64,000 nt of DNA from an uncultured Cryomorphaceae bacterium. GTDB taxonomy: Bacteria; Bacteroidota; Bacteroidia; Flavobacteriales; Schleiferiaceae. A program made the translations under genes and the position numbers. The first letter of the stretch is position 1, and each line of letters opens with the position of its first letter. Where the stretch lies: positions 1 to 64,000 of the forward strand of contig CAKZJV010000007.1 in the NCBI GenBank assembly GCA_937120475.1. Reading direction: 5' to 3'. This document shows, piece after piece, positions 43,658 through 46,495 of this stretch. Below the pieces are notes generated by a model that had not been told where the DNA came from, searched no databases, and saw only the letters and a program-made list of their open reading frames with translations.

Positions 43658-43684
43658 AAAAGCCCCGGTTTTCCGGGGCTTTTT
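43658..43684. terminator. Bidirectional hairpin terminator downstream of the DoxX gene
   Basis: AAAAGCCCCGG (43658-43668), loop TTTT, CCGGGGCTTTT (43673-43683), strong GC arms with T-run on either strand. It stops the minus-strand DoxX transcript. Confidence 0.85.
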
Positions 43685-43712: not shown

Positions 43713-44072
43713 TTATCTGAAACGACCTGGCTCTCGCAGGTAAAGCCCAACCCAAAAAAGAACGGATAATAGAATACCGGCAAACGGAGCGGACGTTTGT
43801 GACCATTCGAAGGAAATGACCCCGCCCAGGTAGGCAATTATGGCCAGGGCTCCGATGCTGCGGCTTTTGGGGATTACAAATAGCAAAACGCATAGTATTT
43901 CAATGGTTCCTAATAAAACAAGGTAATCGCCTATGCCGGTTTCACCCATTACTTCCTGCATTTGTTCGGCTCCGCTTATTTTGCCGATGGCACTCATAAA
44001 AAGGGCCGCAGCCACCAGCCCATTAAGCACCCAGCCGGTTATACGTCTGCCTTTGGATATTTCTGTTGTCAT
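43713..44072 (-). CDS. DoxX-like integral membrane protein
   Basis: 119 residues from ATG 44072, with a TATCTTTG box 16 bases upstream; the earlier in-frame TTG lies in that box and is rejected. Four membrane helices follow the DoxX pattern: WVLNGLVAAALFMSAIGKIS, YLVLLGTIEILCVLLFVIPK, IGALAIIAYLGGVISFEWSQ, and the last segment ending GLYLREPGRF. DoxX-like proteins are small quinone- or stress-linked membrane proteins; exact role unknown. Divergent from the DUF4105 gene, with two GTTTAAAC palindromes between. Confidence 0.85.
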   Translation of the reverse strand: MTTEISKGRRITGWVLNGLVAAALFMSAIGKISGAEQMQEVMGETGIGDYLVLLGTIEILCVLLFVIPKSRSIGALAIIAYLGGVISFEWSQTSAPFAGILLSVLFWVGLYLREPGRFR

Positions 44073-44087
44073 AGTTGGAATTTTACT

Positions 44088-44095
44088 CAAAGATA
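44088..44095 (-). promoter_or_regulatory. -7 box of the DoxX-like gene
   Basis: Minus-strand TATCTTTG, an exact TAnnTTTG element, 16 bases before the ATG at 44072. The adjacent palindromes at 44101-44127 cover the place expected for the -33 region, so they could block polymerase. Confidence 0.55.
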
Positions 44096-44100
44096 TAAAT

Positions 44101-44127
44101 ATTGTTTAAACAATGATGTTTAAACAA
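44101..44127. promoter_or_regulatory. Twin palindromes ATTGTTTAAACAAT and TGTTTAAACA in the divergent promoter region
   Basis: ATTGTTTAAACAAT (44101-44114) is a perfect 14-base palindrome; TGTTTAAACA (44118-44127) repeats its 10-base core after a 3-base gap. They sit between the DoxX -7 box and the DUF4105 start. The arrangement is that expected for a dimeric repressor controlling both genes. Confidence 0.55.
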
Positions 44128-44163
44128 CAAAATGATTCAAAGTCTGAATTGTATCTTCATCGC

Positions 44164-45333
44164 GTGAAAAAACTATGGCTCCTTTTAAGCCTGATTCCAC
44201 TATGGGGTACAGGCCAGTTGCAACTCTCGCCCCAGGCACAAATAAGGGTGGTAACCTGCGGACCTTACCAGGGTGAGCTGTATTCGGCTTTTGGCCATAG
44301 TGCCATCCGGGTGATGGATCCGCAATACGGCCTTGACCTCATATACAATTACGGAGTTTTTGATTACGACCAGCCTAATTTTTACCTCAATTTCGCTAAA
44401 GGTTATCTCCATTATCAATTGGATGTTGGGGATTATTCGCGCTTCCGCTATTTCTATATCCAGGAAGACCGTTTTATGCACGAGCAGATACTAAGCCTTA
44501 CCCTGGAAGAAAAACAGCGGCTTTTTGATTTTTTACAGTGGAATGCGCGTGAAGAGAATAAATATTACTTCTACGATTATTTTTACGACAACTGCGCTAC
44601 CCGTATTCGCGATGCATTGGTGGAAGTATTTGGTGACCGAATCCGGTTTGACGGCAGCTACATTGAAACCGATTACAGCATTCGCGACCTCTGCGATTTG
44701 TATTTACAGCATCAGCCCTGGGGTGATTTAGGGATTGATTTGTGCCTGGGGCTTCCAATGGATAAAAGGGCTACACCTTATGAGTATATGTTTTTGCCGG
44801 ATTACCTGGAAAGTGGCCTGGCTCATGCCTATATTCAAAGGGATGGAAGGGAGGAACCTTTGGTGAAACAAATGCTAATCACGCACCAAACCAAAGAGCA
44901 GCCTAAAAATAGCACACTGTTTAGCCCTCTGTTTTATAGTAGCCTTTTGCTTTTACTCGGTTTATGGATCACTTACCGGGCTCATAAACGAAATACCAGG
45001 CCCCGGGTATTTGATGCAATCCTGTTTACCCTGGTAGGATTACTAGGTTGGATTTTATTTGTTTTATGGGTGGCCACGGATCACCAGGCAGCCGCTCAAA
45101 ACTTCAATTTGCTTTGGGTTTTTCCCCTTTATTTTCCAATTGCCTTGTTGTTGCTCCAAAAATCTACCCCTGGCTTTTTAGGTGCGTTTTTCATGTTTAC
45201 CACCTTTCTACATGGGCTAACCATACTGGCGTGGCCCTGGTGGCCCCAGGATTTACATGAGGCATGGCTGCCTCTGGTAGTTCTGTTGATGATACGTTCC
45301 TACTTCACGCTACGAAGGCTCCGGTCTGCTTAA
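44164..45333 (+). CDS. DUF4105 protein (Lnb N-terminal periplasmic-domain type) with C-terminal membrane helices
   Basis: 389 residues from GTG 44164, which gives a signal peptide (MKKLWLLLSLIPLWGTGQ). An upstream ATG at 44113 would place coding sequence over the palindromic operator and precede the signal with 17 polar residues, so it is rejected. The DUF4105 domain (~20-240) has CGPYQGELYSAFGHSAIRVM with a catalytic-type His and FYDNCATRIRD with Cys, a papain-like pair. Residues ~255-389 form 4-5 membrane helices. A membrane-bound peptidase or amidase-like enzyme is inferred. Confidence 0.85.
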   Translation: MKKLWLLLSLIPLWGTGQLQLSPQAQIRVVTCGPYQGELYSAFGHSAIRVMDPQYGLDLIYNYGVFDYDQPNFYLNFAKGYLHYQLDVGDYSRFRYFYIQEDRFMHEQILSLTLEEKQRLFDFLQWNAREENKYYFYDYFYDNCATRIRDALVEVFGDRIRFDGSYIETDYSIRDLCDLYLQHQPWGDLGIDLCLGLPMDKRATPYEYMFLPDYLESGLAHAYIQRDGREEPLVKQMLITHQTKEQPKNSTLFSPLFYSSLLLLLGLWITYRAHKRNTRPRVFDAILFTLVGLLGWILFVLWVATDHQAAAQNFNLLWVFPLYFPIALLLLQKSTPGFLGAFFMFTTFLHGLTILAWPWWPQDLHEAWLPLVVLLMIRSYFTLRRLRSA

Positions 45334-45490: not shown

Positions 45491-46495
45491 ATGGAAAAGA
45501 TCAGAATAGGGATTAATGGTTTTGGCCGCATTGGCCGTTCCCTTACCCGGGTTATTCGCAAATATCCGCAGTTGCAATTGGTAGCCGTAAACGATCTGGC
45601 TCAAACACAAAATCTGGTGCATCTTTTAAAATACGATACGGTGCATGGCCATTTTCCGGGTGAAGTAAAAGGCGAGCATGATAGCATGTGGATTGATGGA
45701 GAAGAAATAAGGGTTTGGCATGAAAAAGAACCGGCACTTATCCCCTGGAAGGAGCAGCAGGTGGATTTCGTGATTGAAGCCACCGGCCGTTTTAAAAGTC
45801 ACGCCCAGGTTATTCCCCATATTCAGCAGGGTGGAGTTCGTAAAGTGATTATTTCGGCACCCCCCAGTGATGATACCAAAACCATAGTATTGGGCGCTAA
45901 TGAGCATGAGTTGGTGGCTACGGACCAGGTGATTTCCAACGCCTCTTGTACCACCAATTCAGTAGCTCCCCTCCTTAAGGTTGTTGATGAAGTTTGTGGG
46001 GTAGAGCAGGCCTACATTACCACCGTTCATAGTTATACTACCGATCAGCAGCTACAGGACGGCCCGCATAAGGATTTCAGGAGGGGAAGGGCAGCAGCCG
46101 AAAGCATAGTGCCCACTACTACAGGAGCCGCCAAGGCTATTACCCGCATTTATCCGGCCCTGGACGGGCGTATTGGAGGGGCGGGAATAAGGGTACCGGT
46201 ACCCGATGGAAGCTTAACGGATATTACCATTACCGCCCGTCATGATACTACGGTGGAGGAAATTAACGAAGCCTTTAAAAGAGCTTCTGAAGAAGGGCCT
46301 TTTAAAGGTTACCTCGGTTATACCAGCGACCCTATTGTATCACGCGATATTATAGGAAGTCCTTACTCCTGCCTGTTTGATGAGGGCCTTACTTCGGTAC
46401 TCGGAAAAATGGTAAAGGTGGTTGGATGGTACGACAATGAGATGGGCTATAGCCATCGCATTGCCGACCTGATCCTTAAAATGAATTCGCTTTAA
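45491..46495 (+). CDS. gap: Glyceraldehyde-3-phosphate dehydrogenase, type I
   Basis: 334 residues. NAD-binding INGFGRIGRSLTRVI at the N-terminus. Catalytic Cys153 lies in SNASCTTNSVAP, with the phosphate-binding His in TTVHSYTTDQ and the signature GAAKAI. It oxidises glyceraldehyde-3-phosphate to 1,3-bisphosphoglycerate in glycolysis or runs in reverse. The sequence keeps both phosphate sites. It ends in a 4-base TTAA overlap with the convergent TlpA-like gene. Confidence 0.96.
   Translation: MEKIRIGINGFGRIGRSLTRVIRKYPQLQLVAVNDLAQTQNLVHLLKYDTVHGHFPGEVKGEHDSMWIDGEEIRVWHEKEPALIPWKEQQVDFVIEATGRFKSHAQVIPHIQQGGVRKVIISAPPSDDTKTIVLGANEHELVATDQVISNASCTTNSVAPLLKVVDEVCGVEQAYITTVHSYTTDQQLQDGPHKDFRRGRAAAESIVPTTTGAAKAITRIYPALDGRIGGAGIRVPVPDGSLTDITITARHDTTVEEINEAFKRASEEGPFKGYLGYTSDPIVSRDIIGSPYSCLFDEGLTSVLGKMVKVVGWYDNEMGYSHRIADLILKMNSL

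What the first reader, a model, noticed from the sequence alone, without database searches (positions are those of the whole stretch)
44088..44164. Twin GTTTAAAC palindromes control a divergent DoxX / DUF4105 promoter
ATTGTTTAAACAAT and TGTTTAAACA lie between the DoxX -7 box and the DUF4105 start. If they are operators, the usual annotated DUF4105 ATG at 44113 is wrong, since it would lie inside them; GTG 44164 fits better.
Basis: partly seen in the sequence, partly recalled or inferred. Interest (0 to 1): 0.55.

Follow-up and report, generated by a model that had tools for sequence, protein, structure and literature searches.

The report
MarR operator pair controlling DoxX gene
Two abutting DNA palindromes in front of a DoxX membrane-protein gene match those in front of a distant YceI-MarR operon and its relatives, which suggests that one unstudied repressor controls a small, probably redox-related, set of genes.

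Summary
The twin palindromes are real: TGTTTAAACA at 44103-44112 and 44117-44126, start to start 14 bp. Genome-wide (24-mer, up to 3 mismatches) this tandem occurs in only one other promoter, as a triplet with the same pitch, before a yceI-marR operon. That suggests a regulator. Among 17 marR orthologues at least 58% identical, 12 have the palindrome upstream within 1 mismatch, first of 1024 palindromes; 5 do not. In 13 marR-bearing genomes the extended site gives 64 strand matches against 13 for a reversed control, and 29 of 39 places precede YceI, MarR, pirin, LigB, DoxX or YaaA genes; in 16 family genomes without this marR it gives 17 against 18, 1 of 12 places. The closest DoxX orthologue (54%) has the site and is followed by yceI.

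Control of the divergent DUF4105 gene (Lnb family) is not supported: none of 15 orthologues has the site within 1 mismatch. Best reading: a MarR repressor acts on doxX. Binding, sign and ligand are inferred.

The parts
44101..44114 (.). Operator 1, doxX-proximal 14-bp unit ATTGTTTAAACAAT (core TGTTTAAACA 44103-44112)
   Evidence: Sequence; genome-wide tandem search; footprint of marR and doxX relatives
44115..44128 (.). Operator 2, doxX-distal 14-bp unit GATGTTTAAACAAC (core TGTTTAAACA 44117-44126), abutting operator 1
   Evidence: Sequence
44088..44095 (-). doxX -7-like box TATCTTTG, 7 bp from the core of operator 1
   Evidence: Sequence; the consensus TAnnTTTG is recalled; the G020 doxX has TATCTTAG at 8 bp from its palindrome
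43713..44072 (-). doxX, 119 aa, DoxX_2 family (PF13564)
43661..43680 (.). Hairpin AGCCCCGGTTTTCCGGGGCT with T-runs on both strands: terminator-like, downstream of doxX
   Evidence: Seen directly in the sequence; not scored by a tool
44164..45333 (+). DUF4105 gene, an Lnb-family protein, 389 aa from GTG 44164 (likely start; not thought to be controlled by the operators)
44152..44159 (+). TATCTTCA, probable -7-like box of the Lnb gene, close to its GTG start
   Evidence: Counterparts at the same place in L138, L139 and L141, 3 of 15 orthologues

Best explanation
The two palindromes are abutting operators for a MarR-family dimer. The best candidate is encoded about 1.15 Mb away on the same contig, in the yceI-marR operon (G000:C7:1195717-1196786), whose own promoter has three copies at the same 14-bp pitch. 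At doxX the copies lie just upstream of the -7-like box, where bound protein would block RNA polymerase; the protein most likely represses doxX and its own operon and lets go when a small molecule or redox signal appears. Related species use the same site for YceI, marR, pirin, a LigB-type dioxygenase and DoxX, so the set is probably a response to reactive aromatic or quinone compounds or to oxidants. Shown by sequence comparison: the site, its pitch, its restriction to two promoters as a tandem, its conservation with marR, and no enrichment in family genomes without this marR. Inferred: that this MarR binds, that it represses, and the signal.
For: Tandem only at doxX and yceI-marR in the genome. 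A pair also before yceI-marR in a second species of the genus. Palindrome upstream of 12 of 17 close marR orthologues within 1 mismatch (9 exact), first of 1024 palindromes, reversed control 0; 15 of 17 such sites in those loci fall in windows that are 6.6% of the sequence. The closest doxX orthologue has the palindrome at nearly the same place and is followed by yceI. Enrichment 64 against 13 in 13 genomes with marR, 17 against 18 in 16 family genomes without; 29 of 39 places against 1 of 12 precede regulon-type genes (with 68, 69, 77). Among marR-bearing genomes left out of that count, 2 of 3 extended sites of G016 and one site of G031 also precede YceI genes. No other MarR_2 match of the genome has the exact site; the two sites with 1 mismatch near one of them (L182) lie in coding sequence.
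Against: Nothing shows binding. 5 of 17 close marR orthologues lack an upstream site (G005, G016, G020, G023, G031), among them G020, the very genome whose doxX has it. The 13 genomes were 13 of those 17; I had left out G005, G016, G023 and G031, four of the five without a site. For these four the 10-mer gives 38 against 34 for the reversed control, and over all 13 genomes only 108 against 76. Distant DoxX homologues lack the site: 1 of 27 within 1 mismatch, none exact. A second, 32% identical MarR in G018 has an exact site too, so more than one MarR may read this motif. The window's own pair does not match the extended pattern ATGTTTAAACAY used for the regulon count. Only one close doxX orthologue exists in the 149 genomes searched.
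Confidence: 0.75

Rival explanations
1. The operators control both divergent genes, doxX and DUF4105/Lnb.
For: The site lies between the two genes, and its distal copy ends about 25 bp before the Lnb -7-like box at 44152.
Against: None of 15 Lnb orthologues has the site within 1 mismatch; in G020 the site stays with doxX while Lnb is on another contig; the Lnb gene has its own start-proximal box, shared with 3 orthologues.
Confidence: 0.12
2. The operators are real, but a different regulator (another MarR, an HxlR or an unrelated protein) binds at doxX.
For: A 32% identical MarR paralogue in G018 also has an exact site before its gene. Other MarR_2 matches exist in this genome: 7 in all, 3 over the cut-off, this MarR included. 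HxlR genes of the genome were not searched for.
Against: This MarR is the only MarR_2 match in the genome with the exact palindrome before its operon, and the triplet there has the same 14-bp pitch as the doxX pair.
Confidence: 0.12
3. Chance AT-rich palindromes, or an unrelated feature such as a restriction-modification recognition site (GTTTAAAC is the PmeI site, recalled).
For: The single degenerate motif is not enriched in the window, and the exact 10-mer only two-fold in the genome (6 against 3).
Against: Tandem 1 against 0.01 expected in the window and reversed control 0 genome-wide; conservation before marR, yceI and doxX; no enrichment in family genomes without the marR.
Confidence: 0.03

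Closest known systems
Autoregulated MarR-family repressors (MarR, HpaR, SlyA, OhrR, MprA types)
   Same: The candidate binder has the MarR domain over the Pfam cut-off (PF01047, 38 against 24.6 bits); a palindrome lies before its own operon and before few other genes.
   Different: It passes no NCBIfam equivalog cut-off (best HpaR, 49.5 against 121.2 bits); the tandem 14-bp arrays and the YceI/pirin/DoxX/LigB target set match no system found in the literature listings.
MhqR / YodB / CatR quinone-stress regulons of Bacillus (recalled; no paper read here)
   Same: As recalled: MarR- or DUF24-type repressors controlling dioxygenases and a DoxX protein (CatD). Here a MarR site precedes DoxX and, in two relatives, a LigB-type dioxygenase.
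   Different: Operator sequence and most targets (YceI, pirin) differ as far as recalled; no ligand is known; no homology to MhqR was tested.
Solved structure 3u2r, 'Regulatory protein MarR'
   Same: Best PDB sequence match to the candidate MarR (E 1.4e-17, residues 5-145).
   Different: Only the molecule name was seen; no operator or ligand information.

Membership tests
MarR-family regulator (proposed binder) | MarR winged-helix domain | tested here: met
   PF01047 38 bits (cut-off 24.6) and PF12802 33.2 bits (cut-off 27)
MarR-family regulator (proposed binder) | Palindromic site before its own gene or operon, conserved in orthologues | tested here: met
   12 of 17 close orthologues within 1 mismatch, 5 without; triplet before yceI-marR here
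MarR-family regulator (proposed binder) | Binds the site as a dimer and responds to a ligand or oxidant | not testable with these tools
   Needs EMSA or footprint and an inducer screen
HpaR and other named MarR equivalogs | Score over the NCBIfam equivalog cut-off | tested here: not met
   All 10 listed NCBIfam matches are below cut-off; best HpaR 49.5 against 121.2 bits
HxlR operator | HxlR gene of this genome associated with the motif | not tested
   No HxlR search was made; an HxlR-like gene (by eye) is divergent to yceI-doxX in L153, where the motif is absent
DoxX_2 family (window 43713-44072) | Pfam PF13564 over cut-off | tested here: met
   29.3 against 26.3 bits
Lnb lipoprotein N-acyltransferase (window 44164-45333) | Both Lnb Pfam domains over cut-off | tested here: met
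   PF25221 106.5 against 25.2 bits, PF13387 83.8 against 22.2 bits (run on the ORF from 44113)
Lnb lipoprotein N-acyltransferase (window 44164-45333) | NCBIfam equivalog cut-off for Lnb | tested here: not met
   257.8 against 550 bits: an Lnb-family relative, not a confirmed Lnb

The most novel reading that the evidence does not exclude
An undescribed regulon around one MarR protein, with YceI, DoxX, pirin and LigB-type dioxygenase genes as targets in different species: a quinone or aromatic-stress response parallel to, and independent of, the Bacillus quinone-stress regulons. Tandem palindromes at a 14-bp pitch would let MarR dimers pack side by side and bind cooperatively, giving an especially tight switch at doxX and at the regulator's own operon.
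Probability: 0.45. Interest if true: 0.55.

Novelty: new member of a known kind. Interest (0 to 1): 0.42.

Why it matters
It turns an anonymous palindrome into a testable regulator, operator and target list for three widespread but poorly understood families (YceI, DoxX_2, pirin), and it corrects the likely start of a neighbouring Lnb-family gene.

Tried and rejected
The single motif in the window is not enriched, so the tandem and comparative tests carry the argument.

Class-wide DoxX homologues (24 of 395 genomes, own included) showed the link to YceI and MarR but not the motif.

Pirin here: the genome has three pirin genes. Within 2 mismatches only L224:1399 lies close before one, 59 bp upstream. 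Pirin is not claimed as a target in this genome.

Rival sites: two 1-mismatch sites beside an ArsR-like gene (L182) lie in coding sequence. Sites inside a 733-738-aa open frame in four genomes (L194, L196, L200, L207) and in other open frames were counted as not regulatory.

Counting notes. 97 of the 98 marR matches were used; G084, at a contig end, was not fetched. The 13 genomes are 13 of the 17 with a marR at least 58% identical; the four left out (G005, G016, G023, G031) lack a site before marR. I went back to all 7 sites of G016 and to the one fetched site each of G005, G023 and G031: 3 of 10 precede YceI genes. The pirin, LigB and YaaA queries came from the sites themselves, so for those families recurrence and Pfam count, and YaaA (one case) is weak. 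One search gives 27 of 39; the two LigB genes (L191, L212), where the site lies inside an over-long reading frame, were added. Pfam was run on one of the two. Strand matches of a near-palindromic pattern count most places twice. The control genomes are partly incomplete and smaller (9 of 16 at least 90% complete).

Literature: searches were seen as listings only, some of them capped; none of the listed papers was about this motif or a MarR-YceI-DoxX regulon by title and abstract start. No paper was opened. The library is open-access only. (Lnb) was a listing too.

Full report
What is there. The window is bases 1-64000 of contig C7 of a 3.65-Mb genome. Between the minus-strand doxX gene (43713-44072) and the plus-strand DUF4105 gene lie two perfect 10-bp palindromes, TGTTTAAACA, at 44103-44112 and 44117-44126. 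As 14-bp units they abut: ATTGTTTAAACAAT, then GATGTTTAAACAAC. The core of the first is 7 bp from the doxX -7-like box TATCTTTG (44095-44088 on the minus strand).

Chance. TTGTTTAAACAA with up to 2 mismatches is as frequent in the window as expected (7 against 6.89). The tandem is not: 1 against 0.01 expected. In the whole genome, up to 3 mismatches in the 24-mer, it occurs only here and in one other promoter, reversed control 0. The exact 10-mer is at 6 positions against 3 for the reversed control. Besides the two promoters there is one copy inside an ORF and one single copy directly before a 139-aa ORF.

The second promoter suggests a regulator. It holds three palindromes at the same 14-bp pitch in front of a yceI gene followed by a marR gene (Pfam). 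A second species of the genus has a pair before its yceI-marR. The exact tandem was found in 2 of 149 genomes, own included.

The site travels with marR. The MarR has matches (E up to 1e-15) in 92 of 149 genomes, own included, 98 matches. For 97 of them I took 200 bp upstream and 20 bp inside marR, or yceI where that gene leads. Among 17 with at least 58% identity TGTTTAAACA is present within 1 mismatch in 12 (9 exact), first of all 1024 ten-base palindromes, reversed palindrome 0. At 45-58% identity: 8 of 20 (second; TGTTCGAACA has 9). Below 45%: 17 of 60 (first within 1 mismatch; by exact matches TGTATATACA leads 8 to 3). One per genus: 9 of 28 (first). In distant genera sites such as TGTTTGAACA, TGTTAGAACA and TGTATATACA stand in its place. 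Five of the 17 close orthologues have no site (G005, G016, G020, G023, G031). In the 17 loci, 15 of 17 matches within 1 mismatch lie in upstream windows that are 6.6% of the sequence; the nominal probability of 2e-16 ignores relatedness.

The site travels with doxX, on thin evidence. Of 149 genomes only two besides the own have a DoxX match. The close one (G020, 54% identity) has AATGTTTAAACATT 8 bp from a TATCTTAG box and 51 bp from the start, against 7 and 44 bp here, and is followed by a YceI gene. The other (G002, 31% identity) has no site. Class-wide homologues lack it too (1 of 27 loci within 1 mismatch, none exact). Four of those loci adjoin yceI on the same strand, and one (L155) has a 46% identical MarR on the same strand, in a row with genes that look like a peroxiredoxin and an NAD-binding protein by eye.

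Regulon. In 13 marR-bearing genomes ATGTTTAAACAY gives 64 strand matches against 13 for the reversed pattern; in 16 family genomes without a match to this marR it gives 17 against 18. The 39 places of the first set precede 16 YceI, 5 MarR, 4 pirin, 2 LigB-type, 1 DoxX and 1 YaaA genes, 29 of 39; in the second set 1 of 12. Against this: the 13 genomes leave out four of the five close-marR genomes that have no site before marR. For those four the 10-mer gives 38 against 34, and over all 13 genomes it gives 108 against 76. When I went back, 2 of the 3 extended sites of G016 and the one fetched site of G031 proved to precede YceI genes; the fetched sites of G005 and G023 and the other 5 sites of G016 did not precede a regulon-type gene. 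The window's own pair does not match the extended pattern (it has A where the pattern asks for C or T) and is not among the 39.

The DUF4105 side. The protein has both Lnb Pfam domains, and its NCBIfam match is the lipoprotein N-acyltransferase Lnb, below cut-off (257.8 against 550 bits). Of 23 relatives searched, 15 have an orthologue. None of the 15 has the palindrome within 1 mismatch in 250 bp before the aligned start. Seven have ATG exactly at the position of GTG 44164 and seven more within two codons; L151 is partial and uncertain. In the same-genus orthologue (L138) a stop lies six codons before that ATG. TATCTTCA (44152-44159) has counterparts at the same place in L138, L139 and L141. 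GTG 44164 is the likely start and this gene probably has its own promoter.

Mechanism. Shown by comparison: site, pitch, restriction of the tandem to two promoters, conservation with marR, no enrichment without it. Inferred: MarR dimers sit side by side on 14-bp units upstream of the doxX -7-like box and block RNA polymerase until a ligand or oxidant releases them. Recalled, from no call: the TAnnTTTG consensus, that YceI proteins bind isoprenoids or quinones, that some pirins are quercetinases, and that a DoxX protein (CatD) and dioxygenases are under quinone-sensing repressors in Bacillus. With the LigB targets these suggest an aromatic, quinone or oxidant signal.

Known or new. By Pfam the candidate is a MarR protein; it passes no NCBIfam equivalog cut-off. 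Nine literature searches, seen as listings, showed no paper on this motif or regulon. The finding is an ordinary kind of thing, a MarR operator, in a regulon that appears undescribed.

Noticed in passing
window 44164-45333: The gene usually called DUF4105 carries both Lnb domains and resembles the lipoprotein N-acyltransferase Lnb (257.8 against a 550-bit equivalog cut-off).
   Followed up: partly
window 45491-46495; L138:2765-3868: The Lnb gene is followed by what looks like a glyceraldehyde-3-phosphate dehydrogenase gene here and in the same-genus relative G002 (name by eye).
   Followed up: no
L138:1012-1419: In G002 a different, weakly DoxX-like gene (PF07681, 21.5 against 23.6 bits) lies directly upstream of the Lnb gene on the same strand; no palindrome within 2 mismatches in the 250 bp before Lnb.
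   Followed up: partly
L124 and L197 (G018:C3:4592-5038): A second, 32% identical MarR in G018 also has an exact TGTTTAAACA about 41 bp before its gene, so several MarR paralogues may share the motif.
   Followed up: partly
L157, L161, L168, L169: DoxX homologues of other families have repeated GTATAC-like inverted sequences upstream, in place of GTTTAAAC; three of the four adjoin yceI.
   Followed up: no
L155:977-2982: Apparent operon of peroxiredoxin-like, DoxX, NAD-binding-like and MarR (46% identical) genes, which points to a redox role (names other than DoxX and MarR by eye).
   Followed up: no
L224:1399-1408 (own genome, C7 near 1.027 Mb): A 2-mismatch palindrome AGTTTAAGCA lies 59 bp before a pirin gene; possibly a weak further site in this genome.
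   Followed up: partly
G000:C7:2942672-2942681 (L006:1501-1510): A single exact TGTTTAAACA lies directly before a 139-aa ORF of unknown function; possibly a further target.
   Followed up: no
L211 (G029): A peroxide-stress family gene (YaaA, PF03883) has the extended site 71 bp upstream; a single case.
   Followed up: no
L004:176-1456: A gene beginning MTEDFLHY is divergent to yceI-marR or marR, with the palindromes between them, here and in several relatives; whether the operators act on it too was not tested.
   Followed up: no
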